Positions 4,744 through 27,130 of a stretch of 34,706 nt of DNA are shown here, in pieces. Below the pieces are notes generated by a model. It was given only the letters and a program-made list of their open reading frames with translations, was not told the DNA's origin and did no database searches. Position numbers and translations under genes: made by a program. Positions within the stretch are counted from its first letter, which is position 1. Each line of letters starts with the position of its first letter. Source of the stretch: Jiangella ureilytica. Lineage in GTDB: Bacteria; Actinomycetota; Actinomycetes; Jiangellales; Jiangellaceae. The stretch lies in the NCBI RefSeq assembly GCF_004348545.1, contig NZ_SMKL01000066.1, forward strand, positions 1 through 34,706. Direction: 5' to 3'.

Positions 4744-4758
4744 CGGCCGGGCGCGCGA

Positions 4759-4777: not shown

Positions 4778-4808
4778 GGCCGGGTGCTGATAGCCTTTCC
4801 AGGCCCGA

Positions 4809-7401: not shown

Positions 7402-7407
7402 GCTCGC

Positions 7408-7413
7408 AGCGTA
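7408..7413 (-). promoter_or_regulatory. -10 box for leaderless fabH
   Basis: Read on the minus strand this is TACGCT, a TANNNT -10 match ending 6 bases before the fabH ATG. No Shine-Dalgarno sequence is present. Confidence 0.45.
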
Positions 7414-7434
7414 ATCGCGACCCCGGGAGAGGCG

Positions 7435-8900: not shown

Positions 8901-8904
8901 GACC

Positions 8905-9207: not shown

Positions 9208-9222
9208 GCCGTCGTCGACGGT

Positions 9223-9277
9223 CACGCCGTGCTCCACCGGTGGTGCGCACCTGCACCTGACCCCGTACCGCGGCGTG
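9223..9277. terminator. dyad region between convergent genes
   Basis: CACGCCG (9223-9229) and CGGCGTG (9271-9277) are complementary, with the perfect palindrome CCACCGGTGG (9234-9243) between them. The site lies between two convergent genes and could act as a bidirectional terminator. No T-run is present. Confidence 0.35.
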
Positions 9278-9287
9278 AGCTGGTGCG

Positions 9288-10088: not shown

Positions 10089-10202
10089 ACCCGACGACGG
10101 TAGGAAGCCGACGACAGGGCGGTCTTGAAGGATTCGGACGGACTCGGAAGCGAGGCGCAGCCTTCATGCACCCATGCCCGCGACACCGCCGTCAACTCGA
10201 TG

Positions 10203-11579: not shown

Positions 11580-11619
11580 GTCGAGCCGTCCTCGTCGCGA
11601 GATGTGTCGTTCCTCGCTT

Positions 11620-11646
11620 GACGATGCGGCCGCGCGAAGTGTGACT
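11620..11646 (-). promoter_or_regulatory. ECF41-type promoter of the FAD oxidase gene
   Basis: On the minus strand the order is AGTCACA (11640-11646), 16 bases, then CGTC (11620-11623). This matches the ECF41 promoter pattern I recall (TGTCACA at -35, CGTC at -10) in 6 of 7 and 4 of 4 positions. It points at the FAD oxidase gene 40 bases downstream. The adjacent divergent gene encodes an ECF41-type sigma factor. Confidence 0.65.
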
Positions 11647-11658
11647 CCGACCCGCCGA

Positions 11659-11685
11659 GGTCACACGTCGGCCCGCTCGTTCGTC
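11659..11685 (+). promoter_or_regulatory. ECF41-type promoter of the sigma-factor gene
   Basis: GGTCACA (11659-11665), 16 bases, then CGTC (11682-11685) repeats the pattern and exact spacing found on the opposite strand. It implies autoregulation of the sigma-factor gene, which starts at 11709 after a strong GGGAGGAGG (11694-11702). Confidence 0.65.
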
Positions 11686-11708
11686 ATCAGTACGGGAGGA
11701 GGTGCCTG

Positions 11709-12623
11709 ATGACCGATCCGAGCCTGACGGCGATCATGAGCGAGCGGCGCCGGCTGATCAACCTGGCGTACCGGCTGCTCGGCTCGCTCACCGACGCCGA
11801 GGACGTGGTGCAGGAGACCTACGCTCGCTGGTACGCGATGCCGGAGGAGCAGCGCGACGCCGTCGAGACCCCCGCGGCCTGGCTGACCACCGTCGCGAGC
11901 CGCATCTGCCTCGATCAGCTCGGTTCCGCCCGGGCCCGGCGCGAGAGCTACGTCGGCGAGTGGATCCCCGAGCCGGTGCCGGACCGCACGGAGTGGGTCA
12001 CCGGCCGCCCGGCCACCGAGGCCGCCGAGGCCGCGGACCCGGCCGACCGCGTCACCCTCGACGAGTCGATCAGCATGGCCTTCCTCGTCGTCCTCGACTC
12101 CATGACCCCGGCCGAGCGCGTGGCGTTCGTGCTGCACGACGTGTTCCGCTACTCCTTCCCCGAGGTGGCCGAGATCGTCGGACGCACGCCGGCCGCCTGC
12201 CGCAAGCTGGCCTCGTCGGCCCGCCGCCGCATCGACGCGACCCGGGCGCCCGCCGTCCCGGCCGACCGGCACGCCGAGCTCGTCCGCGACTTCAAGGACG
12301 CCTGGGCGGCCAAGGACATCCAGGCCCTCGTCGGACTGCTCGACCCCGACGCGACGGCGATCAGCGACGGCGGCGGCATCGTCCCCGCCTCGCTCGACCC
12401 GGTGCGCACCGGCGAGGGCATCGCCCGCTTCCTCGTCGAGGTCGTCGCCCCGCTGACGTCGCTGCAGGTGCTGGAACGGACGGTCAACGGCCGGCCCGGC
12501 CTGGTGCTGCAGCGCGACGGGGCGACGGTGACCGTGCTGGCCTTCGATGTCGACGGCGACCGGATCACGCGCATCTGGGCGGTGCGCAACCCGGAGAAGC
12601 TGCGCAGCTGGACCACCGGCTGA
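11709..12623 (+). CDS. ECF41-type RNA polymerase sigma factor with SnoaL-like C-terminal domain
   Basis: This 304-residue sigma factor has region 2 (LINLAYRLLGSLTDAEDVVQ, about 16-35) and region 4 (about 120-175, helix-turn-helix SFPEVAEIVGRTPAACRKLASSA). It then has a SnoaL/NTF2-like domain (about 185-300). Three marks of group ECF41 are present: WIPEP at 85-89 (usually WLPEP), DGGG at 220-223 and NPEKL at 294-298 (usually NPDKL). In this group the fused C-terminal domain replaces a separate anti-sigma factor and tunes activity. No anti-sigma gene is nearby, as expected. Known ECF41 genes sit beside an oxidoreductase, epimerase or carboxymuconolactone-decarboxylase gene; here the divergent FAD oxidase fits. 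The inducing signal is unknown. The ATG has a strong Shine-Dalgarno sequence. Confidence 0.93.
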   Translation: MTDPSLTAIMSERRRLINLAYRLLGSLTDAEDVVQETYARWYAMPEEQRDAVETPAAWLTTVASRICLDQLGSARARRESYVGEWIPEPVPDRTEWVTGRPATEAAEAADPADRVTLDESISMAFLVVLDSMTPAERVAFVLHDVFRYSFPEVAEIVGRTPAACRKLASSARRRIDATRAPAVPADRHAELVRDFKDAWAAKDIQALVGLLDPDATAISDGGGIVPASLDPVRTGEGIARFLVEVVAPLTSLQVLERTVNGRPGLVLQRDGATVTVLAFDVDGDRITRIWAVRNPEKLRSWTTG

Positions 12624-12871
12624 TCATGAACCCAGGGCGCTCCGCCCGTAGGTGACCCGCGGACGAGGTGCCGGCGCTCGGCACGTCCGTGACGCCGGTG
12701 GGCATCAGCGCCACCGGCTGCGCGCCGAGGACGGCCACCGCGGCGGCGGTGGGTCCGGCCGGTCGGGCCGGCGATGTGTGGCCATCGCCACGAGCCTCGT
12801 CGGCGGCGGACCGGCGCCGCATCGGCCTGAAGTCGACGGCGGTGCGACCAGCGGCCAAGGCCGTCGTCGCC
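12624..12871. other. intergenic stretch with possible gene remnant
   Basis: A short hairpin GGGCG-CTC-CGCCC (12635-12647) follows the sigma-factor gene and may terminate it. The rest has no recognisable gene. A minus-strand frame from a TTG at 12858 down to 12565 keeps G/C-rich third positions as far as about 12655 (it would contain AVAVLGAQPVALMPTG). It matches no family I know and then runs antisense into the sigma-factor gene. It may be a decayed fragment. Confidence 0.3.
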
Positions 12872-13762
12872 TCAGGACAAAATCACCGACCGGGTGAGGT
12901 TGCGCGGCCGGTCGGGATCGAAACCCTTGGCGAGGGCGGCGGCGACAGCCAGGCGCTGGACGCGGACGAGGTCCGCGACGGGGTCGAGCGGGTCGGCGAC
13001 GACGGTGGCGCCGAGGGCCGTAACCTCCTCGCCCAGGCCGCCGGGCACCAGCCCGCCGAGGAACCAGACCAGGCTGGCGCCGTCGGTCAGGCTGACCGGG
13101 CCGTGGCGGTAGTCCATGGCGGGGTAGGCGTCGGCCCACGACAGCGACGCCTCGCGCATCTTCAGCGCGGCCTCCTGCGCCAGTCCGGTGGTCCAGCCGG
13201 TGCCGAGGAAGGTGTACGGACGGCGCTCCAGCAGGTCGTCGCCGATGGGCCAGGCGAGGGCGTGCTCGAGATCGGCGAGCGCCTGGTCGACCGGCGCGCC
13301 GAGGTGCGCGCGCAGCATCGTCAAGGCGGTCGTGGCGAACCGGGTCTGCACCACCGACCTCTCGTCGGCGAAGTCGAGCACGACCAGCTCGTCGGCGGCG
13401 TCGGCGACCTCGGCGTCGGGCACGGCGGTGACGGCGGTGGCCGGGACCCCGCGCAGGCGGTCGAGCAGCTGCAGGACCTCGGTGGTGGTGCCGGAGCGAG
13501 TGATGGCGAGGACGCGGTCGTAGGACCGGCCCTCGGGGAACTCGGACGCGGCGAACGCGTCCGTCTCGCCGTGACCGCTCGCCTCACGCAGGGCGGCGTA
13601 CGCCTGGGCCATGAACCACGAGGTGCCGCAGCCGACGACGGCGACACGGTCGCCGTCGCGCGGCAGCACGCCCGCGTTCTCGTGGGCGACCTGGGACGCA
13701 CGCCGCCAGCAGTCGCCCTGACTGTCGATCTCCTTCAGCACGTGTCCGCCGCCCAGCACCAT
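12872..13762 (-). CDS. SIS-domain amino-sugar isomerase/deaminase (GlmS-C / AgaS-like)
   Basis: This 296-residue protein is a double SIS-domain enzyme like the isomerase half of GlmS and the AgaS / NagB-II deaminases. These interconvert ketose-6-phosphates with amino-sugar-6-phosphates. The first SIS domain (about 38-160) has VVGCGTSWF (42-50) and ITRSGTTTEVLQLL (87-100), the phosphosugar-binding serine loop. The second has FLGTGWTTGLAQEAALKMREAS and the AYPAMDYRHGP segment that matches AYPAGELKHGP of GlmS. No glutaminase domain is present. The ATG at 13760-13762 lies 3 bases after GGAGG; the adjacent in-frame GTG is better spaced. It is divergent from the GH109-like gene, and the pairing suggests amino-sugar catabolism. 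MurQ-like function is less likely. Confidence 0.87.
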   Translation of the reverse strand: MVLGGGHVLKEIDSQGDCWRRASQVAHENAGVLPRDGDRVAVVGCGTSWFMAQAYAALREASGHGETDAFAASEFPEGRSYDRVLAITRSGTTTEVLQLLDRLRGVPATAVTAVPDAEVADAADELVVLDFADERSVVQTRFATTALTMLRAHLGAPVDQALADLEHALAWPIGDDLLERRPYTFLGTGWTTGLAQEAALKMREASLSWADAYPAMDYRHGPVSLTDGASLVWFLGGLVPGGLGEEVTALGATVVADPLDPVADLVRVQRLAVAAALAKGFDPDRPRNLTRSVILS

Positions 13763-14172
13763 GGTCCTCCAACGGTCGATCGCGCGTGGTCAGATGTGAG
13801 CGATATGCGATGTTATCAGTCACGTTAGTGCAGTCCAGTCTTGACAATCATTGGGCTCGGCGGCACGCGCGACGCGCGAGAGGCCGCCGGCACTGAGCGA
13901 GTGTGAGCGTTCATGACGTTTTTCAGTCGAGAACGCTTGACATCGAGCACGCGGCGTCGACAGGATGTGCCCATTGGGGTGCATTCGCCGCCCTCGGTGA
14001 AGCCCTCAGAGCGTTGACCTGAGCGTGTTGAAGCCGCCGGAGCTCCTTCGGCGGCCACCCGAGTTCCGTCGAACCGATCCACCGGGGTCCGCCGTTCCAC
14101 GACAGCTTCGCCATGCCTTGCCGACCCCGGTGAGCCGAACGGTCCACCGAACCTCAACAGCAGGAGGTAGTC
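13763..14172. promoter_or_regulatory. 410-bp divergent control region, SIS gene / GH109-like gene
   Basis: No gene is seen here. Rightward, TTGACA (13937-13942) and CAGGAT (13961-13966), 18 bases apart, form a good promoter, leaving a leader of about 200 nt. Leftward, a weaker TGGACT-N16-TAACAT (13810-13837, minus strand) precedes the SIS gene. An inverted repeat AGCGTTC (13906-13912) / GAACGCT (13931-13937) abuts the rightward -35 and could be an operator. A leader hairpin is formed by GCCGCCG (14033-14039) and CGGCGGC (14049-14055). The GH109-like gene has Shine-Dalgarno AGGAGG before the ATG at 14173. Confidence 0.5.
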
Positions 14173-15582
14173 ATGGCACCTGAGTCCGAATCGCCGGGCC
14201 TGACCCGGCGCGCGCTCCTCGGCACCGGCGTGGCCGCGGGCGCCGGCCTGGGCATGGCCGGTCTGCCCGGCGTCGCCGCGGCCGACGACGATCCCACCGG
14301 CCGGGCTCCGGAACGCCGCAAGGGCGAGCGGTTCATGGGCGGCGTCCCCTTCGAGCGGCACGACGTCGTGCGGGTGGGGATCATCGGCCTGGGCATGCGC
14401 GGCGGCGGCATGCTCGACCGGTTCCTGGCCACGGCCGGCGTGCGCATCACCGCACTCGGCGACATCAACCAGGCCAAGCTGGACGAGGGCGCGGCGGCGG
14501 TGCGCGCGGCGGGCCAGCCCGACCCGGCCCTCTACAAGGGCGAGCACGCCTACGAGAAGCTGGCCCGGCGCGACGACGTCGACTTCATCTACACCGCGAC
14601 GCCGTGGGAGTACCACCACCCCATCTGCATCTCGGCCATGGAGAACGGCAAGCACGTCGGCACCGAGCTGCCGCTGGCCATGACGCTCGACGAGCTCTGG
14701 GACATCGTCCGCACGTGCGAGCGCACCCGCCGGCACGCGTTCATCTTCCACAACCGCTCCTACGGCCTGGACCAGCTGCGGATGCTCCGCTTCGTCGAGG
14801 CCGGGCGGCTGGGCAAGCTGCTCTACGGCTCCGGCGGCTACGTGCACGACCTGCGCGAGCTCAACTTCAGCGACGACCACGAGCCGGCCGGCTGGCGGCG
14901 CAAGTGGCACACGCGGCTCAACGCCAACCTCTATCCGGTGCACGGCCTAGCCCCGATCTCGAACGCCATGAAGATCACCCGCGGCGACCGCTACGACTGG
15001 CTCATCGCTGTGGCGTCGCCCGAGGCGGGCTACTCGGAGTACCGCGCGGCGAACATGCCGCCCGGCCACCCGTCGTGGCGCGAGAAGTACATCTGCGGCG
15101 ACACGAACATGTGCTTCATCCAGACCGTCCAGGGCCGGTTCATCCGCTCCGAGCACGACGTCTCAGCGCCGCACCCGTACACGCGGGCAAACACGCTGCA
15201 GGGGTCCAAGGGCAAGCTGACCGAGGACGACCGGACGACGGCGTTCGCCAACCGCTGGCAGGTCTACGTCGAACCCGACCACGACGACCACCGGTGGCGC
15301 CTGTTCTCCGACTACGGCGCCGAGTACGACCACTGGCTGTGGAAGGCCGGCATCGCGAACGACGCCGACCAGCTCGTGGTGTACCGGACGATGCAGCTGT
15401 TGCGGCTCGGGCTGCCGCCGGACATCGACGTCTACGACTCCGCGACGTGGACCGTCCCGATCCCGCTGAGCCACGAGTCGGTGAAGCGCGGCAGCCGGGC
15501 GGTGAAGGTGCCCGACTTCACCCGCGGCCACTGGCGCGAGGACCGGCCGAACATCAACTCGGAGCAGCCCGCCGAGGTGTGA
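14173..15582 (+). CDS. Tat-exported GH109-like glycosidase (Gfo/Idh/MocA fold)
   Basis: This 469-residue protein starts with a twin-arginine signal (TRRALLGTG at 11-19, hydrophobic to about 37), so it is exported folded. The Rossmann domain (VRVGIIGLGMRGGG, 66-79) binds NAD. The body matches family GH109, alpha-N-acetylgalactosaminidase type, which uses bound NAD+ in a redox-assisted hydrolysis. Family landmarks are TPWEYHHPI (143-151), GKHVGTELP (159-167), NLYPVHGLAP (252-261), YICGDTN and the HDVSAPHPYTR segment. Conserved Y197, Y254, H257 and Y336 fit the family's active-site tyrosines and histidine by position. Differences from the usual sequence (SAPHPYTR for SSPRPYSR) leave the sugar uncertain. 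The divergent SIS enzyme supports an amino-sugar substrate. A plain dehydrogenase is the alternative. Confidence 0.8.
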   Translation: MAPESESPGLTRRALLGTGVAAGAGLGMAGLPGVAAADDDPTGRAPERRKGERFMGGVPFERHDVVRVGIIGLGMRGGGMLDRFLATAGVRITALGDINQAKLDEGAAAVRAAGQPDPALYKGEHAYEKLARRDDVDFIYTATPWEYHHPICISAMENGKHVGTELPLAMTLDELWDIVRTCERTRRHAFIFHNRSYGLDQLRMLRFVEAGRLGKLLYGSGGYVHDLRELNFSDDHEPAGWRRKWHTRLNANLYPVHGLAPISNAMKITRGDRYDWLIAVASPEAGYSEYRAANMPPGHPSWREKYICGDTNMCFIQTVQGRFIRSEHDVSAPHPYTRANTLQGSKGKLTEDDRTTAFANRWQVYVEPDHDDHRWRLFSDYGAEYDHWLWKAGIANDADQLVVYRTMQLLRLGLPPDIDVYDSATWTVPIPLSHESVKRGSRAVKVPDFTRGHWREDRPNINSEQPAEV

Positions 15583-15590
15583 CGACCCCA

Positions 15591-15632
15591 CGCCCGCGCC
15601 CCCGGTCACCGTCGTGGCCGGGGGCGCGGGCG
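15591..15632. terminator. strong bidirectional terminator-like hairpin
   Basis: A perfect 15-bp stem, 15591-15605 paired with 15618-15632, closes a 12-nt loop. It lies 8 bases after the GH109-like stop and 14 bases before the end of the convergent gamma-glutamyltransferase gene, so it can serve both. No T-run is present. Confidence 0.75.
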
Positions 15633-15645
15633 CGGGCGGGGGTCG

Positions 15646-17430
15646 TCAGCGGCCGACGGCGTAGCCCTGCATCCCGCGCGGGTTGGCCGCCGCGCGGAGG
15701 AACCCGCCGGGCTCGTGGCCGGCGGCGGAGACCCGGCCGAGCGACCAGTCGTCCTCGACGGTGACGCGGTGGCCCCTCGCGCGCAGCCCCTGCAGCACCC
15801 GCTCGCCGACGCGGCCCTCGATGTACAGCGCGCCGGGCTCGCTGCCGCGCGGGTAGAACGACGACGTGAAGTGCGTGGTGTGCCAGGCGGGCGCGTCGAT
15901 GGCCTGCTGCAGGCCGTGCCCGTGGTGGACCAGGCGCAGCAGGAACAGCAGCGACCACTGGTCCTGCTGGTCACCGCCCGGCGTCCCGAACGCGAGCCGC
16001 GACCCGTCGGGCCGCAGCACCAGGCTCGGCGTCAGCGTGGTGCGCGGGCGCTTGCCCGGGGCCAGCGAGTTCGGCAGGCCGTCCTCGAGCCAGAACATCT
16101 GGCCCCGGGTGCCCAGGCCGAAGCCCAGGCCCGGCACGGCCGGCGAGCTCTGCAGCCAGCCGCCGCTAGGGGTGCACGAGACGACGTTGCCCCAGCGGTC
16201 GGCGACGTCGAGGTGGCAGGTGTCGCCGTGGGTGCCGGCCCAGGTGGGCTCGCCGCTCCCGCTGCCGAGTGGCTGCGCGACGGCCGACGGCGGACGCGGG
16301 AGCCGCGGCTCACGACCGGCGGGCCGGCCGGGACGCAGCGGCCCGGTGTCGGCGGCGGCCGCGTCGACGAGGCGGGCCCGCTCCTGGGCGTACGACGGCG
16401 CCAGCAGTGCCGCCAGCGGCACCTCGGCGAACGCCGGGTCGCCGTAGAACGCCTCGCGGTCGGCGAAGGCCAGCTTCGCCGACTCGACGACGAGGTGGAC
16501 GAAGTCCGCGCCGTCCGGCTCGGCAGAGCCCAGACCGGCGGCGTCGAGCAAGGCGAGCTGCTGCAGGAACACCGGGCCCTGGCTCCATGGCCCGGCCTTG
16601 AGGACGGTGTGGCCGTGGTAGTCGTACGCGACGGGGTCCTCGACGGTCGCGCGCCACGCGGCCAGGTCGCCCGCGGTGAGCAGCCCGCGGTGCGCCGCAC
16701 CGCTCTCGTCCATGACCTCGGTCGCCGCGAACGCCGTCAGCGCCTCGGCGACGAACCCCTCGTAATAGGCCCGCCGGGCCCGCTCGATCTGCTCGTCGCG
16801 GTCGCCGGAGCCGGCCTCGGCCTCGGCGACGATCCGCTCGTAGGTCGCCGCGAGCTCGGCGTTGACGAACCGGTCGCCCGCCCCCGGCGCCGCGCCCGCC
16901 GCGCCCCTCAGCCACAGCGCGGCCGACGTCGGCCAGTGGGTGCGAAACCAGGCCGCCGACTCGCCGATGACCCGCGCCGCCGACGCCCCCAGCGGAAAGC
17001 CGCCGCCGGCGTACTCGATGGCGTAGGACATGACGTCGCGCGGGCGCATGGTGCCGTAGCGCTGCAGGAGCAGCATCCAGCCGCCGAACGCCCCGGGCAC
17101 GACGGCGGGCAGCAGCCCCGTCCCCGGGACCACCTCGACGCCGAGGTCGCGGACGGCGGCACTGGTGGCGGCGGCCGGCGCGACGCCCTGGCCGCAGACC
17201 ACGAACGGCTCGCCGGCGGCGGCGTCCCAGCCGACGACCGGCAGGTCACCGCCCGGCCCGTTCATCTCCGGCTCGACCACCTGCAGCACCAGCCCCGCGG
17301 CGACGGCGGCGTCGAAGGCGTTGCCGCCGCGCTCCAGCACGGACATGCCGGCCTGCGACGCCAGCCAGTGCGTCGAGGCGACCATGCCGTGGGTGCCGGT
17401 GAGCTCGGGTCGGGTCGTGAATGTCGTCAT
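15646..17430 (-). CDS. gamma-glutamyltransferase-family Ntn hydrolase, cytosolic
   Basis: This 594-residue protein is a gamma-glutamyltranspeptidase-family precursor that should self-cleave into two chains. The N-terminal hallmark GGNAFDAAVAAGLVLQVVEPEMNGPGGDL (35-63) is intact. The likely nucleophile is T404 in GTHGDTCHLDV, after which WGNVVSCTPSGGW and the FGTPGGDQQDQ segment complete the active site. Length is normal. Unlike typical GGTs it has no signal peptide, so it should act inside the cell on imported gamma-glutamyl or similar amide compounds. It lies 67 bp downstream of the ROK repressor on the same strand. The ATG at 17428-17430 starts MTTFTTRPEL. Substrate unproven; some relatives are acylases. 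Confidence 0.87.
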   Translation of the reverse strand: MTTFTTRPELTGTHGMVASTHWLASQAGMSVLERGGNAFDAAVAAGLVLQVVEPEMNGPGGDLPVVGWDAAAGEPFVVCGQGVAPAAATSAAVRDLGVEVVPGTGLLPAVVPGAFGGWMLLLQRYGTMRPRDVMSYAIEYAGGGFPLGASAARVIGESAAWFRTHWPTSAALWLRGAAGAAPGAGDRFVNAELAATYERIVAEAEAGSGDRDEQIERARRAYYEGFVAEALTAFAATEVMDESGAAHRGLLTAGDLAAWRATVEDPVAYDYHGHTVLKAGPWSQGPVFLQQLALLDAAGLGSAEPDGADFVHLVVESAKLAFADREAFYGDPAFAEVPLAALLAPSYAQERARLVDAAAADTGPLRPGRPAGREPRLPRPPSAVAQPLGSGSGEPTWAGTHGDTCHLDVADRWGNVVSCTPSGGWLQSSPAVPGLGFGLGTRGQMFWLEDGLPNSLAPGKRPRTTLTPSLVLRPDGSRLAFGTPGGDQQDQWSLLFLLRLVHHGHGLQQAIDAPAWHTTHFTSSFYPRGSEPGALYIEGRVGERVLQGLRARGHRVTVEDDWSLGRVSAAGHEPGGFLRAAANPRGMQGYAVGR

Positions 17431-17497
17431 GGCCTCTCGTTCCTTGGTCGGGTGTCCGCCTCGTGTGCCCGATTCGTCCCCACCCCGAGGCATGATG

Positions 17498-18751
17498 TCA
17501 CCCGGTGGCGCCGCCGAGCTGGTCGAAGATCTGCCTCTCGACGGTGTCGATGCCGCGCCGGACGGCGCCGAGCGCGATGGCCTGGTCCTCCAGCGAGGTG
17601 ACGTGCACCCGCGGCGGGGCCGGCACGGCGGCGTCGAGCTGCTGCTGGAGCCGGGGCAGGTAGGCGCCGAGCTGCTCGCCGACCTCGCCGCCGAGCACGA
17701 CGATCTCGGGATTGAGCACGGCCGCGATGCTGGCCAGCCCGCCGGCGAGGTGGCCGAGGACGGTGTCGACGATGCCGGCGGCGGTCCGGTCGCCGTCGCG
17801 CGCCGCGGCGAGCACCGAGGCGGCGGTGATCTCTCCCGACCGGGACGGCCGGAGGCTGGTCTCCTCGCCCCGGGCGATCGCCTCGGCGGCGAGCGCGCTG
17901 AACGCCGTCGCGCCGGCGGCCGCCTCGAACGGGCCGAGCCCGGCGGCGGTGCCGGTGGCCGGCCGCGACCGGACGACCGGCAGGTAGCCCACCTCGCCCG
18001 CGGCGCCGTCGGCCCCGGCGTAGACGGTGCCGTCGATGAGGAACCCCATGCCGACGCCGACGTCGATCTGCACGTAGGCGGCGTTGCGCAGGCCCGCGGC
18101 CACACCCCGCCAGTACTCGCCGATGACCGCGAGGTGGACGTCGTGCTCGAGCAGCACGGGGGCCGCCAGCGCCTCGGAGAGCAGCCGGGCGAGCGGCCGG
18201 CCCTCCCATCCCGACAGCTGCGGCACCAGCCGGACGGTGCCGGACTCGCGGTCGACGATGCCGGGCGTGCCGACGACCACGGCCCGCACCGCCGACCAGT
18301 CCGCCTCGCCCTGCGCCACGACGTCGCGCACCGTCTGCCGGACCGCGCGCAGCACCTCGTCCTGGCGGCCGCCGTGCGGGGTGGGCCGCCGCGCCGAGCC
18401 GAGGATGGTGCCGTCGAGGTCGGACAGCAGCGCAAGGATCCGCGACGCCTCGACGTCGACCCCGACCACCAGCCGGCGGCGTGAGTTGAACTGCAGCAGC
18501 CGGGCCCGCGGGCCGGGCCGGCGCGGCCGCTCGGTGCCGCCGTCGAGCGACTCGGTGATCAGGCCCTCAGCCAGCAGGGTTTCGACAACCTCGTTGACGG
18601 TTGGCTTGGAGATGCCGCTGACACGCACGACATCGCTGCGCGGCATGGGTCCCTCGCTGCGGATGATGCGCAGTACATGGGCCAGGTTGAGGCGTCTGAG
18701 GACCGATGGCGATCCCGCCGCAGTGTCCCCCGGAGGTGTGACCTTCACCAC
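17498..18751 (-). CDS. ROK-family transcriptional repressor
   Basis: This 417-residue protein has an N-terminal winged helix (LAHVLRIIRSEGPMPRSDVVRVSGISKPTVNEVVETL, about 23-60) fused to a ROK sugar-kinase-like sensor domain, as in NagC/XylR. The usual zinc motif (C-x-C-G-x2-G-C) is absent; the region after GEVGYLPVVRSRP has no cysteines, and EVGY replaces the common E-x-G-H. Catalysis is therefore unlikely, and the domain should act only as a sugar sensor. The start is a GTG at 18749-18751 (a second GTG follows at once) just after a TATCCT -10-like box. It is divergent from the ABC transporter operon and upstream of the GGT gene. A dyad in the shared promoter is its probable operator. Confidence 0.88.
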   Translation of the reverse strand: MVKVTPPGDTAAGSPSVLRRLNLAHVLRIIRSEGPMPRSDVVRVSGISKPTVNEVVETLLAEGLITESLDGGTERPRRPGPRARLLQFNSRRRLVVGVDVEASRILALLSDLDGTILGSARRPTPHGGRQDEVLRAVRQTVRDVVAQGEADWSAVRAVVVGTPGIVDRESGTVRLVPQLSGWEGRPLARLLSEALAAPVLLEHDVHLAVIGEYWRGVAAGLRNAAYVQIDVGVGMGFLIDGTVYAGADGAAGEVGYLPVVRSRPATGTAAGLGPFEAAAGATAFSALAAEAIARGEETSLRPSRSGEITAASVLAAARDGDRTAAGIVDTVLGHLAGGLASIAAVLNPEIVVLGGEVGEQLGAYLPRLQQQLDAAVPAPPRVHVTSLEDQAIALGAVRRGIDTVERQIFDQLGGATG

Positions 18752-18760
18752 GAATACCCC

Positions 18761-18788
18761 TTGACAGGATAGGTAGGTTTCTTATCTA
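18761..18788 (+). promoter_or_regulatory. promoter and putative ROK operator of the transporter operon
   Basis: TTGACA (18761-18766) and TATCTA (18783-18788), 16 bases apart, form a likely promoter for the binding-protein gene. An imperfect dyad GATAGG-N7-CTTATC (18768-18786) fills the spacer. The opposite strand carries TATCCT for the ROK repressor gene. This AT-rich island stands out in GC-rich sequence. Repressor binding here would control both directions. Confidence 0.5.
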
Positions 18789-18837
18789 GTTATACCCGAA
18801 TCGCTCAGGTTCGGCACGGATGCGGGAGGTGTGAGAC

Positions 18838-20415
18838 ATGCGTACTCATCGAAGCACCGGCGCCCGTCGCCGGTGGCGGGTGTGCGGCTCGTCCGCGGTG
18901 GCGCTGATCGTCCTGGCGGCCTGCGGCGGCTCGGGCGACGACGACGGCTCCGGAGAGGGCTCCGGTGGCGGCGCGGACGGCTCGGCCGAGATCACGATCT
19001 CCATGGTGGAGGACGCGGACACGCTCGACCCCACGTTCGGCCAGACCTTCGGCGGCCGCTACGTGTTCATGCACATGTGCGAGAAGCTTTACGACCTCAG
19101 CCCCGAGCTGGAGATCGTGCCCCAGCTGGCGGCCGAGCTGCCCACGGTGTCGGCCGACGGGCTGACGGTGACGATCCCACTGCGCGAGGGCGTGCAGTTC
19201 AACGACGGCGAGCCGTTCGACGCCGAGGCCGTGAAGACCTCGCTCGACCGGCACCGCGAGACCGAGGGCTCGGCCCGCGCGGGTGAGCTGGCCCCGGTGA
19301 GCGAGGTCCGCGTCGCCGACCCGATGACGGTCGAGATCGCGCTCGCGCAGCCCTATGCGCCGCTGACGGCGATCCTGGCCGACCGCTCCGGCATGATCAT
19401 GTCGCCGGCCAAGCTCGAGGACCTGGGCGAGGACTTCACCCAGGACCCGTCCTGCGTCGGTCCGTTCACGCTGACCGAGCGCGTGGTCGGCGACCGCATC
19501 GTCCTGGAGAAGTCCGACCTGTACTACGACGCGGACCAGATCCACATCGACCGGGTGATCATGCGCCCGATCCTCGACGACACCGTCCGCGTGGCGAACC
19601 TGCGCTCCGGTGAGATCGACGTCATCGACCGCATCCCGACCACGGAGTACGCCCAGCTCGAGAGCGCTGACGGCATCACCGTCGACACCCTGCCGTCGCT
19701 GGGCTTCGACACTCTCATGCTCAACACCGTCGACGGGCCGTTCGCCGACGTGCGGGTGCGCGAGGCGTTCGAGCTGGCGCTGGATCGCCAGGAGATCAAC
19801 GACACCGTCTACGGCGGCCTGCACTCCACCAGCTGCCAGCCGTTCCCGGGCGCGAGCCCGTACCACCTCGACGACCTCGAGTGCACCGAGCGCGACCCGC
19901 AGGCGGCCCAGGACCTGCTGGCCGAGGCGGGCGCGGCGACACCGGTCGCGATCGACCTGGTGCTGCTCAACAACACCCTCAGCACCCGGCGCGGCGAGCT
20001 GATCCAGGCGCAGGCCGCCGAGGCCGGCTTCGAGGTGAACGTCCGGCCCACGGAGGTCGGCACCCTCATCGACGACGCCGCCGCGGGCGCGTTCGACGCC
20101 GTCGTGCTGACGTGGTCCGGCCGGGCCGACCCGGACGGCAACTTCGCCACCTTCGAGCACACCGACGGCGGGCAGAACTTCGGCGGGGCGTCCGACCCTG
20201 AGATCGACGCCGCCATCGAGGCCGCGCGCAGCGTCAACGACCCGGCCGAGCGCGCCTCTGCCTACGCGGCGGCGTGGGACCTGGCCCGGGCGCGACACAG
20301 CGAGATCGTCCTGATGAACCCGAACCTCCTGACCGGCTGGCGCGACACCGTCCAGGGCCTGCAGCTGGTCCCGGACGGGCTGATCCGGCTCAAGGGAGTG
20401 TCGGTCTCGGAGTGA
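18838..20415 (+). CDS. ABC transporter substrate-binding lipoprotein, family 5
   Basis: This 525-residue lipoprotein is the extracytoplasmic receptor of the importer. The N-terminus has basic residues, a hydrophobic stretch and the lipobox VLAAC with C29, followed by an acidic Gly/Ser linker. The rest is a family-5 (DppA/OppA/NikA) binding protein: DADTLDPTFGQTFGGRYVF near the start, TIPLREGVQFNDGEPFDAEAVKTSLDRH, then AALD-type motif FELALDRQEINDTVYGG. Family 5 proteins bind peptides, but many actinobacterial ones bind oligosaccharides. The ROK kinase in the operon favours a sugar-containing ligand. The ATG at 18838 has GGGAGGTG six bases upstream. The permease gene starts 16 bp after the stop. 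Confidence 0.9.
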   Translation: MRTHRSTGARRRWRVCGSSAVALIVLAACGGSGDDDGSGEGSGGGADGSAEITISMVEDADTLDPTFGQTFGGRYVFMHMCEKLYDLSPELEIVPQLAAELPTVSADGLTVTIPLREGVQFNDGEPFDAEAVKTSLDRHRETEGSARAGELAPVSEVRVADPMTVEIALAQPYAPLTAILADRSGMIMSPAKLEDLGEDFTQDPSCVGPFTLTERVVGDRIVLEKSDLYYDADQIHIDRVIMRPILDDTVRVANLRSGEIDVIDRIPTTEYAQLESADGITVDTLPSLGFDTLMLNTVDGPFADVRVREAFELALDRQEINDTVYGGLHSTSCQPFPGASPYHLDDLECTERDPQAAQDLLAEAGAATPVAIDLVLLNNTLSTRRGELIQAQAAEAGFEVNVRPTEVGTLIDDAAAGAFDAVVLTWSGRADPDGNFATFEHTDGGQNFGGASDPEIDAAIEAARSVNDPAERASAYAAAWDLARARHSEIVLMNPNLLTGWRDTVQGLQLVPDGLIRLKGVSVSE

Positions 20416-20431
20416 CCGGAAGGACGGGTCG

Positions 20432-21394
20432 ATGACCGCGTACGTGATGAGGAGAGCGGGCTGGGCCATCGTCACCCTCCTGCTGGCCTCGGTGGTGGTG
20501 TTCATCGGCGCGCACGCCCTGCCCGGCGATCCGGCCCTGGCGCTGGCCGGGCAGGAGGGTGCGCGCGACCCGGAGCTGCTGGCGGCCATCCGCGAGCGCT
20601 ACGGGCTGGACCAGCCGCTCCCCGCACAGTACGTCGCCTGGCTCGGCCAGGTGCTGCAAGGCGACTTCGGGCAGTCGATCCGCACGTCGTTGCCGGTGGC
20701 TGACATGGTGGCCGACCGGGTCCCGGTGACCCTCCAGCTGGCGGCCTGCAGCCTGCTGATCGCCATGCTGGTGGGCATCCCGATCGGCGTGCTGGCGGCC
20801 GTGTACCGGGGCCGCTGGCCCGACCACCTCGGCAACGCCCTCACGCTGACCGGGATGTCGGTGCCGAACTTCTGGGTCGGCCTGATCCTCATCGCGGTCT
20901 TCGCGGTGCAGTTCGGGATCTTCCCGGCGTCGGGGTTCGTGGCGTTCGCCGACGACCCGGTGGCGAACCTGCAGCACCTGGTGCTGCCGTCGGTGGTCCT
21001 CGGGATGGGGCTCTCGGCGGTGATCATGCGGCAGACGAGGTCGTCGATGGTGCAGACCCTGAGCGCGGACTTCATCCGCACGGCACGCGCCAAAGGGCTG
21101 TCCGAGTGGTCGGTGGTGGTGCGGCACGCGCTGCGCAACAGCCTGCTGACGGTCACGACGATCCTGGGCCTGCAGCTGGGCCTGCTGATCGCCGGCTCGG
21201 TGGTGACGGAGCAGATCTTCCTCATCCCGGGCTTCGGCAAGCTGATCATCGACGCCGTCGCCACTCGCGACTACCCGGTGATCCAGGCCGTCACCCTGCT
21301 CGCCGCCGTCGCTTACATCGTCGTCAACCTGCTGGTCGACGTGCTCTACACCGTCCTGAACCCCCGAGTCCGGCTGGAGGCGAGGGCAGCGTGA
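20432..21394 (+). CDS. ABC transporter permease, DppB type
   Basis: This 320-residue inner-membrane permease is the DppB-like partner in the importer. It has six predicted membrane segments, beginning with AIVTLLLASVVVFIGAHAL. The DppB N-terminal signature GDPA follows, then the linker YGLDQPLPAQYVAWLGQVLQGDFGQSI. The coupling loop that contacts the ATPase is DFIRTARAKGLSEWSVVVRHALRNSLL, matching the E/D-x-I-R-T-A-R-A-K-G consensus. Its GTGA end overlaps the start of the second permease. Confidence 0.92.
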   Translation: MTAYVMRRAGWAIVTLLLASVVVFIGAHALPGDPALALAGQEGARDPELLAAIRERYGLDQPLPAQYVAWLGQVLQGDFGQSIRTSLPVADMVADRVPVTLQLAACSLLIAMLVGIPIGVLAAVYRGRWPDHLGNALTLTGMSVPNFWVGLILIAVFAVQFGIFPASGFVAFADDPVANLQHLVLPSVVLGMGLSAVIMRQTRSSMVQTLSADFIRTARAKGLSEWSVVVRHALRNSLLTVTTILGLQLGLLIAGSVVTEQIFLIPGFGKLIIDAVATRDYPVIQAVTLLAAVAYIVVNLLVDVLYTVLNPRVRLEARAA

Positions 21395-22265
21395 CCGCCG
21401 TGACCGCCGTCGACACCACCACCGAGCGGGTCGTCCGGCGCCGCGGCGTCCTGCGCCGCATCGCCGGGCACCGCACCGGCCGCATCGGGCTCGTCCTCGT
21501 GGGCGGGGTGGTGCTGGTCGCCCTGCTGGCGCCGGTGCTGGCGCCGTTCGGGCCCGAGGAGATCACCGGCACGCCGGCGCTCACGGGGCCATCCGGTGCG
21601 CACTGGCTCGGCACCGACGAGCTCGGCCGCGACGTCGCCTCGCGCATCATCTGGGGCAGCCGGACGTCGTTGCAGGTGAGCGTGCTGGCGACGCTGCTCG
21701 CGCTGCTGGTGGCGCTGCCGCTGGGGTTGATGGCCGGGTACTTCCGCGGCCGGCTGGACACCGTCGTCATGCGGCTGACCGACACCGGGCTGGCGTTCCC
21801 GTTCATCGTCCTGGCCGTCGGGCTGACCGCGATCTTCGGGCCGTCGATGGTCAACGCGGCGATCGCCATCGGCATCTCGCAGGTGCCCATGCTCATCCGG
21901 GTGGTCCGCGGCGAGGCGCTCGCGGTGCGCGAGGAGGACTACATCGCCGCATCGGTGGCCGACGGTGCCGGCAGCGCCCGCATCCTCGGACGGCACGTCC
22001 TGCCGAACATCGTCAACACCTTGATCGTGCAGGTCACTGTGCTGATGCCGTTCGCGATCATCACCGAGTCGATGCTGTCGTTCCTCGGCCTCGGGGTGCA
22101 GCCGCCGACACCGTCGTGGGGGGTCATGCTCACGGCCGCCCAGGCGTACACCGCGCAGGCACCGTGGCTGGCGGTGTTCCCGGGCCTGGCGATCTTCGTG
22201 GCGGCGCTCGGCTTCAACCTGCTCGGCGACGGCGCTCGCGACGCCCTGGACCCACGGAGGGCACG

Positions 22266-22269
<4 letters not shown>
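21391..22269 (+). CDS. ABC transporter permease, DppC type
   Basis: This 292-residue permease is the DppC-like partner. It has the N-terminal cytosolic segment and first membrane helix (GLVLVGGVVLVALLAPVLAPFGP), then the DppC signature HWLGTDELGRDVASRIIWGSR. The coupling loop is EDYIAASVADGAGSARILGRHVLPN. Five more membrane helices follow. It begins at a GTG that overlaps the previous stop by 4 bases and ends in an ATGA overlap with the first ATPase gene, so all are made in step. Confidence 0.92.
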
Positions 22270-23281
<1,012 letters not shown>

Positions 23282-23285
<4 letters not shown>

Positions 23286-24286
23286 GCCAGCAGAGCCCCG
23301 GGAGTCCCGTGCTGCGGGCCGGCGGCCTGGTCAAGGATTTCCAGGTCGGCTCCGTCGGCCGCCGGTCGGTGCTGCGCGCCGTCGACGGCGTCGACCTCGA
23401 GCTGGCCGCGGGCGAGACGTTCGGCCTGGTGGGGGAGTCGGGCAGCGGCAAGTCGACGCTGGGCAAGGTGCTGCTGCGGCTGCAGACGCCGACGGCCGGG
23501 ACGGTGGAGTTCGAGGGCCGCGACATCTCCCGCGCCGGCGGGCGCGAGCTGCGCGCCGTCCACCGCCGGCTGCGGATGGTGTTCCAGGACCCGTACTCGT
23601 CGCTGGATCCGCGGATGTCCATCGGCGACATCGTCGCCGAGCCGCTGCGGCTGCACCGGGTGGCCCGTGGCCGCGACCTGGAGGCGCGGGTCACCGGGCT
23701 GTTCGACCAGTGCGGGCTCGCGGCGGCCTGGCGGCACCGGTACCCGCACGAGCTCTCCGGCGGGCAGCGCCAGCGGGTCGGCATCGCGCGCGCGCTCAGC
23801 CTGCGCCCGTCGGTCCTCATCGCCGACGAGCCGGTGTCGGCGCTGGACGTGTCGGTGCAGGCCGGGATCCTCAACCTGCTCAAGGACCTGCAGGCCGACC
23901 TGGGGTTCACCTGCCTGTTCATCTCCCACGACCTCAGCGTCGTGGAGTTCATGTGCGACCGCATCGCCGTCATGTACCTGGGGCGCATCGTCGAGGTGGC
24001 GAAGGCGAGCGAGCTGTTCGCCCTCCCGCGGCATCCGTACACGCAGGCGCTGCTGTCGGCCGACCCCCCGCTGCACGCCGACGCCGCGGCCACGCCCCGG
24101 GTGGTGCTCAGCGGCGACATGCCCAGCGCGCTCGACCCGCCGCCGGGCTGCCGGTTCCACACCCGCTGCCCGGTCGCCGAGGCGGTCTGCCGGACGGAGG
24201 ACCCCGCTCTGGTCCCGCGCGCCGCCGACGGCCACCCGGTGGCCTGCCACCTGGTGCTGGCCGACGGATCGGGTCCCCGCCTGTGA
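23282..24286 (+). CDS. ABC transporter ATPase, DppF/OppF type
   Basis: This 334-residue ATPase should pair with the previous one. Walker A is GESGSGKST (51-59), the signature is LSGGQRQRVGIARAL and Walker B is VLIADEPVSALD. The C-terminal oligopeptide cap has RHPYTQALLSADP and the cysteine pattern CRFHTRCPVAEAVC. The GTG start at 23282 overlaps the upstream stop (GTGA), and the stop overlaps the kinase GTG in the same manner. Confidence 0.93.
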
Positions 24287-25185
24287 CCGCGGCGACGGTC
24301 ATCGCGCTCGATGTGGGCGGCACCGTCATGAAGGGCGCCGTCCTCGACGAGGCCATGAACGTGCTGGCCGAGACGTCACGGCCGACCGCCCGCCACCTGG
24401 GCCCGGACGCCGTCGTCAAGTCCGTGCTGACCGCGCTCGAGGAGCTGGCGGCACATCCGCGGGCGCGGACCGCGACGGCCGCCGGGCTGGTGGTGCCGGG
24501 CATGGTCGACGCGCAGACCGGGACGGCGGTGTTCTCGGAGAACCTGGGCTGGGCCGACGTGCCGTTCACCGAGCTGGCCGTCGCCCGCACCGGGCTGCCG
24601 GTCGCGTTCGGGCACGACGTCCGGGTCGCCGCGCTGGCCGAGTCGCGGCTGGGCGCGGCCCGCGACCGCCACGACGTGGTCTTCCTCGCCATCGGGACGG
24701 GGATCGGCGCGGCACTGATCGTGGACGGGAACCTGCTGGAGGCGGGCGGGTACGCGGGCGAGATCGGGCACGTTCGCGTCGCCGGTAGTGAGCCGTGCGC
24801 ATGCGGTGGCCAGGGGTGTCTCGAGACCGTGGCGTCGGCCGCGGCCATCGCCCGGCGCTACGGCGAGCGCAGCGGCCGGGCCACCGACGGCGCCGCCGAG
24901 GTGCTCGCGCGGGCCCGCAGCGGTGACGCCGTCGCCCGCCAGGTCTGGCACGAGGCGGTCGAGTACCTGGCGACGGCGCTGGCCATCGGCTCGTCGCTGG
25001 TCGGCCCGGAGCTGGTGGTCGTCGGCGGCGGGCTGTCGCTGGCCGGCGACGACCTGCTGGTGCCGCTGGCCCGGCGGCTGGACGAGCTGCTCACCCTGCA
25101 GCGGCTGCCGTCGCTCGCGGCGGCCGCGCTGGGCGACCGGGCCGCCTGCCTGGGCGCCGGCCTGCTCGCCTGGGAGCTCGCGTAG
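24283..25185 (+). CDS. ROK-family sugar kinase
   Basis: This 300-residue protein is a catalytic ROK kinase that would phosphorylate a hexose or amino sugar with ATP. The phosphate loop is DVGGT (10-14). D112 in GHDVRVAALAE is the likely catalytic base. GTGIGAALIVDGNLLEAGGYAGEIGH leads to H163, and the zinc site CACGGQGC (172-179) is complete with E181 after it. This contrasts with the divergent ROK repressor, which lacks the zinc motif. The GTG start overlaps the ATPase stop and the stop overlaps the SDR GTG by one base (TAGTG). Substrate specificity (glucose, GlcNAc, ManNAc, allose) cannot be read from the motifs. Confidence 0.92.
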   Translation: MTAATVIALDVGGTVMKGAVLDEAMNVLAETSRPTARHLGPDAVVKSVLTALEELAAHPRARTATAAGLVVPGMVDAQTGTAVFSENLGWADVPFTELAVARTGLPVAFGHDVRVAALAESRLGAARDRHDVVFLAIGTGIGAALIVDGNLLEAGGYAGEIGHVRVAGSEPCACGGQGCLETVASAAAIARRYGERSGRATDGAAEVLARARSGDAVARQVWHEAVEYLATALAIGSSLVGPELVVVGGGLSLAGDDLLVPLARRLDELLTLQRLPSLAAAALGDRAACLGAGLLAWELA

Positions 25186-25937
25186 TGCGTGGCCTGGCCG
25201 GCAAGGGCGTGCTGGTGACCGGCGGGACCAGCGGCATCGGGCTGGCGACCGCCCGGCGGTTCCTGGCCGAGGGGGCGCGGGTGTTCGTGTGCGCGGACGA
25301 CGCCGCTGCAGTCGACGCGACGGTGGCCTCGCTCGGGGTGGGCGGCGGGTACTGCGACGTGAGCCGCTCGGAGGAGGTCGGCTCGATGGTGGCGGCCGCC
25401 GACGCCTGGCTGGGCGGCATCGACGTCCTGGTCAACAACGCCGGCGTCGCGCAGCGCTCCCCGTTCCTCGACATCACGGCCGCGTCGTTCGACCGCGTGG
25501 TCGCCGTCAACCTGCGCGGCGCCTTCCTCGTCGCCCAGGCCGTCGCGCGGGGCATGGTGGAACGCGGGCGCGGCGGCGTCATCCTCAACATGTCCTCGAC
25601 CAACGGCCTCGGCGGCGAGGAGGACTACGCGCACTACAACGCCACCAAGGCCGGCGTCCTGCTGCTCACCCGCACCATGGCCGTCGAACTGGGGACGCAC
25701 CGCATCCGGGTGAACGCGCTGTGCCCCGGCTACATCCGCACCCCGCTCAACGCCGCGATCGCCGCCGGATCGGGCGACGACTTCGTCGGTGCGTACATAC
25801 GCGACCGGATCCCGCTGGCCCGGGCCGGCTCGGCCGAGGACGTCGCGGGGGCCTACGCCTTCCTCGCCTCCGACGACGCCGCCTTCGTCACCGGCACGGA
25901 GCTCGTGATCGACGGCGGCCAGCTGGCGGTGATGTGA
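25185..25937 (+). CDS. short-chain dehydrogenase/reductase
   Basis: This 250-residue NAD(P)-dependent oxidoreductase is a classical SDR. The cofactor loop is TGGTSGIG (12-19), the structural motif is NNAG (84-87), and the catalytic set is S138, Y151 and K155 (YNATK). PGYIRTPLN follows, and the C-terminus ends FVTGTELVIDGGQLAVM, usual for sugar-alcohol or 3-oxoacyl-type SDRs. Being last in a transporter-kinase operon, it probably oxidises or epimerises the imported sugar or its product; this is inferred. The GTG start overlaps the kinase stop. Confidence 0.9.
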   Translation: MRGLAGKGVLVTGGTSGIGLATARRFLAEGARVFVCADDAAAVDATVASLGVGGGYCDVSRSEEVGSMVAAADAWLGGIDVLVNNAGVAQRSPFLDITAASFDRVVAVNLRGAFLVAQAVARGMVERGRGGVILNMSSTNGLGGEEDYAHYNATKAGVLLLTRTMAVELGTHRIRVNALCPGYIRTPLNAAIAAGSGDDFVGAYIRDRIPLARAGSAEDVAGAYAFLASDDAAFVTGTELVIDGGQLAVM

Positions 25938-26437: not shown

Positions 26438-26950
26438 TCAGGCGGGAACGGGGTCCCTGTCGGCGGCGGACCCGGCCGACGAAGCCTCGACGGTGCCGCT
26501 CAGGACCGGGCCGGCGCCGCTGTCGATGGCCTGCGGGCCGTGGTCGCCGGACGACGTCACGTTGATCTTGCGCGGCTTCGCCTGCTCGGCGACCGGGATG
26601 AGCAGCGTCAGGACACCGGAGTCGTAGTTCGCGGTGATGTGCTCGAGATCGAGGTTGTCGCCGAGCACCAGCTGGCGGCTGAAGACGCCGCGTGGTCGTT
26701 CGGCGGCGATCAGTTCCATGTCGTTCTCGGGTGCGGGACGCTCGGCCTTGACGGTCACGACGTTGCGCTCGACGTCGAGGTCGATCGAGTCGACGGCCAC
26801 GCCCGGCAGATCGAACTCGACGACGAACCGGTCGCCCTCGCGCCAGGCGTCCATCGGCATGACGGCCGGACGGGCGAGGGTGCCCCTGGTGCCCAACATC
26901 TGCTGGGTCAGACGGTCCAGCTCACGGAACGGATCGGTGCGCATAAGCAT
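26438..26950 (-). CDS. Hsp20-family small heat shock protein
   Basis: This 170-residue protein is an alpha-crystallin-type holdase chaperone that binds unfolding proteins without ATP. The N-terminus [18 protein letters not shown] is typical. The alpha-crystallin domain covers about residues 33-130, with [31 protein letters not shown] and the closing [18 protein letters not shown]. The tail is long and acidic. The ATG at 26948-26950 is chosen because GGGAGGTGG lies about 5 bases upstream; the frame is open to 26998 but those residues are unlike the family. It is divergent from the XRE-argS operon. No HspR (HAIR) or CIRCE repeat is seen. Confidence 0.93.
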
Positions 26951-27130
26951 CGGTTCCACCTCCCATGCACAGACACAGAGATGCTCCTCGTGGACCATGA
27001 GACCGCTCGTGCGATCTATGGCATGCGCTACACTTTTTCTATAACACAGCGGCCAGAAGGCCGCAAGAGCCGGATCGCGAGAGATCGTGGACGCGGAGTG
27101 CGCACACGCGAGCGGTATTAGTATTGGGGC
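26951..27130. promoter_or_regulatory. divergent control region, Hsp20 / XRE-argS
   Basis: An AT-rich patch (27031-27045, with a T5 run and TATAAC) and a perfect hairpin GCGGCC-AGAA-GGCCGC (27049-27064) lie between the divergent genes. TAGTAT (27119-27124) ends 6 bases before the XRE ATG at 27131, pointing to a leaderless transcript. The Hsp20 promoter cannot be placed with confidence. Confidence 0.45.

What the first reader, a model, noticed from the sequence alone, without database searches (positions are those of the whole stretch)
12872..25937. Candidate amino-sugar or glycopeptide uptake and breakdown locus combining GH109, SIS, GGT, ROK and a family-5 importer
Genes that fit one pathway lie together: a Tat-exported GH109-like glycosidase, a SIS isomerase/deaminase of the GlmS-C/AgaS kind, a family-5 ABC importer, a ROK sugar kinase, an SDR, a cytosolic gamma-glutamyltransferase-like hydrolase and a ROK repressor. 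The motifs are seen. The family roles (GH109 on GalNAc, SIS on amino-sugar-6-phosphates, ROK on sugars) are established. The linked pathway is inference: outside trimming of a glycoconjugate, import of a sugar-peptide, inside cleavage of a gamma-glutamyl-type bond and phosphorylation of the sugar. Pairing a peptide-type importer and a GGT with amino-sugar enzymes is not a standard arrangement I know.
Basis: partly seen in the sequence, partly recalled or inferred. Interest (0 to 1): 0.8.

Follow-up and report, generated by a model that had tools for sequence, protein, structure and literature searches.

The report
Mosaic amino-sugar and amide-uptake gene locus
An actinobacterium carries an accessory gene cluster that joins a peptide-type importer and an unusual amide-cleaving enzyme to amino-sugar enzymes, but two of its proteins lack active-site residues that the proposed sugar-peptide pathway would need, so it is probably a variant route for a still unknown conjugated amino sugar.

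Summary
The locus is a mosaic of two modules that occur apart elsewhere.

Module A, family-5 importer plus GGT-like Ntn hydrolase, forms an operon in 9 of 9 other importer homologues read.

Module B, SIS plus ROK kinase, has left ends within 1.5 kb in 43 of 393 class genomes; in loci read it lies with PfkB, class-II aldolase, DeoR and a CUT1 importer. The own genome holds such an N-acetylgalactosamine-type locus, including the PfkB and aldolase missing here.

A and B were found joined only in the window and one congener (2 of 393).

The GH109-like protein lacks the GGHGG loop with the catalytic His and has E149 changed to His; 26 of 29 places keep the loop. The GGT-like protein lacks the arginine that reads gamma-glutamyl and is closest to LmbA2991, a homologue that cleaves a C-C bond.

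Best reading: accessory uptake and catabolism of an N-acylated or amide-conjugated amino sugar, finished by the genome's other locus. Substrate unknown.

The parts
12872..13762 (-). SIS-domain amino-sugar-phosphate isomerase/deaminase-like protein, 296 aa
   Evidence: Pfam SIS; best NCBIfam GlmS/GlmD/AgaS models, all below cut-off; QEAALKMREA...YRHGP keeps the GlmS-type E, K, E, H; residue roles recalled
13763..14172 (.). divergent promoter region of SIS and the GH109-like gene
   Evidence: 410 bases; no operator shared with 18752-18837 found
14173..15582 (+). Tat-type Gfo/Idh/MocA protein of the GH109 fold without the GGHGG loop, E149 to H
   Evidence: Pfam PF21252 and PF01408; loop and E149 missing
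15646..17430 (-). GGT-like Ntn hydrolase, LmbA2991-like, 594 aa, D-T cleavage site
   Evidence: Pfam PF01019; below NCBIfam GGT cut-off; nearest solved chain 6J3A; R114 to Q
17498..18751 (-). ROK-family repressor with winged HTH
   Evidence: Pfam ROK and MarR-type HTH
18752..18837 (.). divergent promoter of repressor and importer operon
   Evidence: 86 bases, 83 of 86 identical in the congener; TTGACA-like -35 seen by eye
18838..20415 (+). family-5 solute-binding lipoprotein
   Evidence: Pfam SBP_bac_5; lipobox-like VALIVLAAC by eye
20432..21394 (+). importer permease B
   Evidence: Pfam BPD_transp_1 and N domain
21391..22269 (+). importer permease C
   Evidence: Pfam BPD_transp_1, OppC_N
22266..23285 (+). 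importer ATPase D
   Evidence: Pfam ABC_tran, oligo_HPY
23282..24286 (+). importer ATPase F (start 23279 or 23282)
   Evidence: Pfam ABC_tran, oligo_HPY; starts
24283..25185 (+). ROK sugar kinase, 300 aa
   Evidence: Pfam ROK; DVGGT and GHx9CxCGxxGCxE motifs; nearest solved chains are ROK glucokinases
25185..25937 (+). SDR oxidoreductase
   Evidence: Pfam adh_short_C2; TGGTSGIG and YxxxK; over the cut-off of NF005559 glucose 1-dehydrogenase subfamily

Best explanation
The locus is an accessory, mosaic catabolic locus. A family-5 ABC importer takes up a small amide- or acyl-conjugated amino sugar. A cytosolic LmbA-like Ntn hydrolase removes the acyl or amide part, not a gamma-glutamyl group. 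The ROK kinase made in the same operon phosphorylates the amino sugar. The SIS enzyme converts the amino-sugar 6-phosphate to a keto-sugar 6-phosphate and ammonia. PfkB and class-II aldolase of the genome's other amino-sugar locus finish the route. The exported GH109-like protein has kept the C3-oxidising and C2-proton-transfer residues but lost the acid/base loop, so it more likely oxidises a sugar at C3, or releases only easy leaving groups, than hydrolyses ordinary glycosides; the SDR may handle a keto-sugar. The ROK repressor controls at least its own divergent operon. Shown: gene content, operon overlaps, residue losses, the two separate conserved modules. Inferred: the substrate, order of steps, regulation, and complementation by the second locus.
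For: SIS-ROK pair within 1.5 kb in 43 of 393 genomes; in loci read it, or SIS alone, lies with DeoR, PfkB, class-II aldolase, an amidohydrolase, GH20, GH89 or CUT1 importers. Importer-GGT operon in 9 of 9. Kinase gene overlaps the last ATPase gene and SDR gene overlaps the kinase gene. SIS active-site residues intact. Second locus with PfkB and aldolase at the ends of contigs C166 and C82. Two nagA hits over cut-off in the genome. GalNAc route as reviewed in PMC12118421 (passages). All 11 genes kept in G012.
Against: No substrate is known. The two modules sit together in only 2 closely related genomes of 393, so co-location may be chance. No shared operator was found. PfkB, aldolase and NagA are absent from the locus itself. 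In most named loci of GGT-like relatives no such importer was found: permeases within 8 kb in 8 of 80 (5 of the 43 with 8 kb on each side), binding protein in 11 of 80. Importer equivalogs and PDB relatives give no sugar ligand that I could assign.
Confidence: 0.42

Rival explanations
1. Two independent modules lie side by side by chance: a second N-acetylgalactosamine-type set (SIS, ROK kinase) and an unrelated peptide/amide importer with its Ntn hydrolase.
For: Each module is conserved without the other; the union is in 2 of 393 genomes and absent upstream of argS in the 5 congeners read; no shared operator.
Against: The kinase gene overlaps the importer's last ATPase gene by 4 bases and the SDR gene overlaps the kinase gene by 1, so part of module B is in module A's operon; order and identity kept in G012.
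Confidence: 0.27
2. One reading: exported GH109 trims a glycoconjugate, a sugar-peptide is imported, a gamma-glutamyl bond is cut inside and the sugar phosphorylated.
For: Gene families as named; Pfam GH109_C and GGT hits.
Against: GGHGG loop and E149 missing; gamma-Glu Arg lost, score 257.5 against cut-off 357.85 for TIGR00066; nearest relative LmbA2991.
Confidence: 0.08
3. Recycling of cell-wall fragments: import of muropeptide-like material, Ntn hydrolase on D-Glu-containing peptides, kinase and SIS on the amino sugar.
For: 7 of 80 relatives of the GGT-like gene lie near an enolase-superfamily (dipeptide-epimerase-like, recalled) gene and a DUF1611 gene; a related importer in G017 lies beside an M19 dipeptidase and an amidohydrolase.
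Against: The SIS protein has no MurQ model among its six NCBIfam hits; no amidase- or MurQ-type family among the Pfam hits of the eleven genes; the 7 loci are all alphaproteobacterial by title.
Confidence: 0.13
4. The Ntn hydrolase and importer serve a specialised metabolite (uptake, inactivation or a biosynthetic step as in lincomycin), with the sugar genes modifying its sugar part.
For: Nearest solved relative is LmbA2991 of the lincomycin producer.
Against: No biosynthetic core gene among the eleven genes typed; LmbA2991 itself lies outside the lincomycin cluster.
Confidence: 0.1

Closest known systems
N-acetylgalactosamine (Aga) pathway, kinase-type, as in Shewanella (agaK, agaA, agaS; PMC2996990, passages)
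   Same: sugar kinase plus deaminase/isomerase of the SIS kind; the genus's other locus adds PfkB and class-II aldolase
   Different: window locus lacks deacetylase, PfkB and aldolase and uses a family-5 importer; SIS scores 32.8 bits against 529.2 for the AgaS model
Bacteroides thetaiotaomicron BT4240-50 mucin O-glycoprotein/GalNAc locus (PMC11992087, passages)
   Same: GH109-family protein, proposed uptake of glycopeptides and a GalNAc kinase in one locus
   Different: that GH109 is active on Tn antigen and the kinase is of the APH family, reported to act at O1; here the GH109 loop is missing and the kinase is ROK
LmbA / LmbA2991 / Ant6 gamma-GT homologues (PMC5519988, passages)
   Same: GDTCHLD cleavage site and missing gamma-Glu Arg as in 6J3A, the nearest solved structure
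   Different: no alkylproline biosynthesis genes seen here; paired with an importer
GH109 N-acetylgalactosaminidases (2IXA, 6T2B) and GH188 sulfoquinovosidases (PMC10755693, passages)
   Same: NAD-binding fold; Tyr and His of the C2/C3 chemistry of GH109 kept
   Different: GGHGG loop His and E149 absent; GH188 was not compared by sequence here

Membership tests
GH109 | Rossmann + GH109 C-terminal domain | tested here: met
   PF01408 and PF21252 over cut-off
GH109 | GGHGG loop with catalytic acid/base His | tested here: not met
   absent in window and G012; present in 26 of 29 places found; loop role from the title of Teze 2020 in reference lists and passages in PMC10755693
GH109 | Tyr and His of 6T2B Y226/H259 (2IXA Y179/H228) | tested here: met
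   window Y223 and H257
GH109 | Glu at 2IXA position 149 (sugar-contacting role recalled) | tested here: not met
   His in window and G012; Glu in the other 27 of 29 places
gamma-glutamyltransferase (true) | Ntn Thr after autocleavage | tested here: met
   GDTCHLD; autocleavage itself not tested
gamma-glutamyltransferase (true) | Arg114 (E. coli) that binds the gamma-Glu carboxylate (role recalled) | tested here: not met
   Gln81, Gln also in 6J3A
gamma-glutamyltransferase (true) | TIGR00066 equivalog cut-off | tested here: not met
   257.5 against 357.85 bits
LmbA-like gamma-GT homologue | closest sequence and D-T cleavage motif | tested here: met
   6J3A 606 bits against 191 for the next solved protein other than its Ala variant 6J3I; TCHLDVVDRW and D420/T421 identify 6J3A as LmbA2991 by inference
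LmbA-like gamma-GT homologue | C-C cleavage with release of oxalate | not testable with these tools
   needs an assay
Aga (GalNAc) catabolic locus | kinase, SIS deaminase/isomerase | tested here: met
   by family and residues only
Aga (GalNAc) catabolic locus | PfkB and aldolase in the locus | tested here: not met
   no such Pfam hit in the eleven genes; present in the genome's other locus
AgaS (TIGR02815) | model cut-off | tested here: not met
   32.8 against 529.2 bits
MurQ etherase | MurQ model hit | tested here: not met
   no MurQ family among the six NCBIfam hits
Opp/Dpp family-5 importer | SBP_bac_5, two permeases, two ATPases with oligo_HPY | tested here: met
Opp/Dpp family-5 importer | named substrate class | tested here: inconclusive
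   none of the 11 NCBIfam hits over cut-off; PDB relatives mixed

The most novel reading that the evidence does not exclude
A new catabolic route in which a gamma-GT homologue serves as cytosolic deacylase of an imported N-acyl (for example oxalyl- or aminoacyl-) amino sugar, in place of NagA/AgaA, together with a loop-less GH109-fold sugar 3-dehydrogenase outside the cell; the importer-Ntn-hydrolase operon seen in 9 of 9 other genomes would then mark a general uptake system for acyl-amide compounds in actinobacteria.
Probability: 0.18. Interest if true: 0.68.

Novelty: new variant of a known kind. Interest (0 to 1): 0.4.

Why it matters
Zhong et al. (PMC5519988, passages read, 2017) state that to their knowledge none of the actinobacterial gamma-GT homologues of their network had been characterised except LmbA-like ones. 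A conserved operon with one importer, here coupled to a sugar kinase, gives a concrete handle for finding a substrate. The loop-less GH109-like protein shows that a GH109_C domain hit alone does not prove an N-acetylgalactosaminidase.

Tried and rejected
Chance grouping: rejected within each module, still open for their union.

True gamma-glutamyltransferase: rejected on residues and model cut-off. The phmmer alignment to E. coli GGT is poor in the small subunit, so for the residue equivalent to D433 (recalled) I rely on the alignment to 4Y23, where Asp meets Met; treat as weak.

Recent duplication from the own-genus locus: rejected for SIS. In a midpoint-rooted tree of 19 rows the window and G012 copies join those of other family members (99/97), not the genus paralogues. 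The kinase tree (15 rows) is unresolved at that point.

Shared operator between the two divergent promoters, or between 13763-14172 and the other locus's promoter: searched by shared words and inverted repeats, none convincing. Some likeness in AAACG-type words to the other locus was seen by eye and not tested.

A re-check weakens that: three of the five congeners read (G015, G005, G013) share their upstream content, a fourth in part, and the M24/tRNA-Arg pair points the other way relative to argS in the window. No att site: the best match to the last 20 bases of the tRNA downstream has 6 mismatches.

Structure prediction of the GH109-like protein: mean pLDDT 41, not used, no fold search made. 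One gene-calling script lost the GGT gene in 29 of 80 loci; the counts use tblastn on all 80 instead.

Limits: the 393 class genomes are an even draw, and the GH109 search used another draw of 340. Hits beyond the E-value limits set are not counted. In some searches only up to 3 to 6 candidates per genome were scored, so misses are possible. The coordinates counted were pasted by hand. The search for related loci kept the best 80 of 370 relatives.
Full report
WHAT IS THERE. The window is contig C131 of a 6.3 Mb genome, 73.7% GC. SIS (-) and GH109-like (+) are divergent. GGT-like and ROK repressor (-) are divergent from a seven-gene operon: binding protein, two permeases, two ATPases, ROK kinase, SDR (+). 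Within the operon there is a gap of 16 bases and then overlaps of 1 to 4 bases if the second ATPase starts at 23282.

CONSERVATION OF THE WHOLE. Of 22 family genomes only the window's and G012 have a close binding protein (100 and 94%); two others have 41 and 31% matches. G012 keeps all eleven genes at about 86-97%. In 393 class genomes, SIS relatives (110 genomes), ROK kinase relatives (103) and GGT-like relatives (74) were mapped at set E-value limits. SIS or kinase lies within 30 kb of the GGT-like gene only in G000 and G012, although 31 genomes have all three.

MODULE A. Nine other class genomes have a binding protein at 40-43%. In 9 of 9 the operon holds binding protein, two permeases, one long or two ATPases and a GGT-like gene. 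A GntR/FCD regulator near one was typed by Pfam (L153); similar proteins near others (L154, L155, L156, L157, L159, L161) were recognised by eye. Sugar-type neighbours are rare but not absent: L159 has a ROK kinase-like gene (33%) beside the operon, and L153 and L155 a ROK repressor-like gene (30%) a few genes away. Conversely, GGT-like genes often lack the importer nearby: permeases within 8 kb in 8 of 80 named loci, binding protein in 11 of 80. In 7 of 80 the neighbours include an enolase-superfamily gene and DUF1611.

MODULE B. SIS and ROK kinase have left ends within 1.5 kb in 43 of 393 genomes, 95 having both. In five family genomes read (L133-L137) the set is CUT1 binding protein and permeases, SIS, ROK kinase, PfkB, class-II aldolase, GH109 and DeoR, and in 2 of 5 GH89; types are from Pfam on L134 and L135 and from clustering for the rest. 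In the window's own genome the same set lies at the ends of C166 and C82, most likely one locus cut by the assembly. Elsewhere SIS lies with DeoR, an amidohydrolase (NagA-type by eye), PfkB and aldolase (L165), with ROK kinase, PfkB, aldolase, CUT1 and GH20 (L167), and in L162, L163, L164 and L169 with the aldolase without this kinase or PfkB adjoining. This fits the known GalNAc route: kinase or PTS, deacetylase, AgaS, tagatose-6-P kinase, aldolase (PMC12118421, passages; Shewanella kinase type, PMC2996990, passages). The window SIS groups with family members outside its genus and not with the genus paralogue (99/97).

GH109-LIKE PROTEIN. Solved relatives are 6T2B and 2IXA. In GH109 the catalytic acid/base lies in a GGHGG loop (title of Teze et al. 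2020 in reference lists; PMC10755693, passages, names His404, Tyr226 and His259 of 6T2B, though its sentence gives the acid/base role to His259; its own overlay puts the His404 equivalent at C1 and the His259 equivalent at C3). The window protein has the Tyr and His (Y223, H257) but no loop, and His in place of 2IXA E149. Of 29 places found, 26 keep GHGG; window, G012 and one distant copy (L101, 44%) do not. I infer a protein that can still oxidise C3 but is a poor glycoside hydrolase.

GGT-LIKE PROTEIN. The nearest solved chain is 6J3A. Its small subunit begins TCHLDVVDRW after D420/T421, which is what Zhong et al. report for LmbA2991 of Streptomyces lincolnensis (PMC5519988, passages); the identity of 6J3A with LmbA2991 is my inference. 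LmbA2991 cleaves a C-C bond, with oxalate as co-product in that assay system. A reply paper (PMC6085292, start of abstract in the listing) says LmbA and Ant6 lack gamma-glutamyl activity. R114 of E. coli GGT is Gln in window and 6J3A. So a gamma-glutamyl bond is not the expected target.

SIS, KINASE, SDR. SIS keeps the E/K/E/H set of GlmS-type isomerases (roles recalled), and the C-terminal Lys of GlmS (recalled) is Arg in all 16 rows aligned, window included. The kinase keeps DVGGT and the zinc motif. The SDR has the classical motifs.

SETTING. argS is matched in all 12 genus genomes, the close binding protein in 2 of the 12, and none of the 5 congeners read has the cluster upstream of argS. 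The cluster is therefore accessory within the genus. Three of the 5 (G015, G005, G013) share their content between argS and an M24 peptidase gene, G006 in part; in G011 the M24 gene follows directly. A tRNA-Arg(ccg) lies beside the M24 gene in 4 of the 5 and in the window, but the pair points the other way in the window and is 22 kb from argS. How the cluster arrived is open: no integrase among the six genes of 5434-10088 typed and no repeat of the tRNA end.

LITERATURE. In the held library, no paper holds gamma-glutamyltranspeptidase, ABC transporter, amino sugar and ROK together, and none holds Streptomyces, N-acetylgalactosamine, SIS domain and catabolism. The library lacks most subscription journals.

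JUDGEMENT. Real genes, real partial linkage, two chemical steps of the proposed pathway contradicted by residues. New variant of known catabolic loci, substrate open.

Noticed in passing
window 3976-4882 and 27415: M24 peptidase gene and tRNA-Arg(ccg), which lie near argS in congeners but in the opposite direction: the region upstream of argS has been rearranged in this genome.
   Followed up: partly
window 26438-26998: HSP20 gene region with a 95% DNA-identical stretch elsewhere in the genome (C86).
   Followed up: no
L138 (G017:C10) 9064-18637: Related family-5 importer beside an amidohydrolase and an M19 dipeptidase (Pfam) and a beta-lactamase-like serine hydrolase (by eye) instead of a GGT-like gene.
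   Followed up: partly
L032, L045, L048, L059, L060, L078, L079: GGT-like genes of alphaproteobacteria near an enolase-superfamily gene and DUF1611, possibly D-glutamate or murein-peptide breakdown.
   Followed up: partly
L134 and L137: The genus's other amino-sugar locus carries an alpha-N-acetylglucosaminidase (NAGLU, GH89) next to GH109 (Pfam on L134, clustering for L137).
   Followed up: no
window 6463-8900: KAS III-like, OsmC-like and APH-type phosphotransferase genes upstream of the cluster.
   Followed up: no
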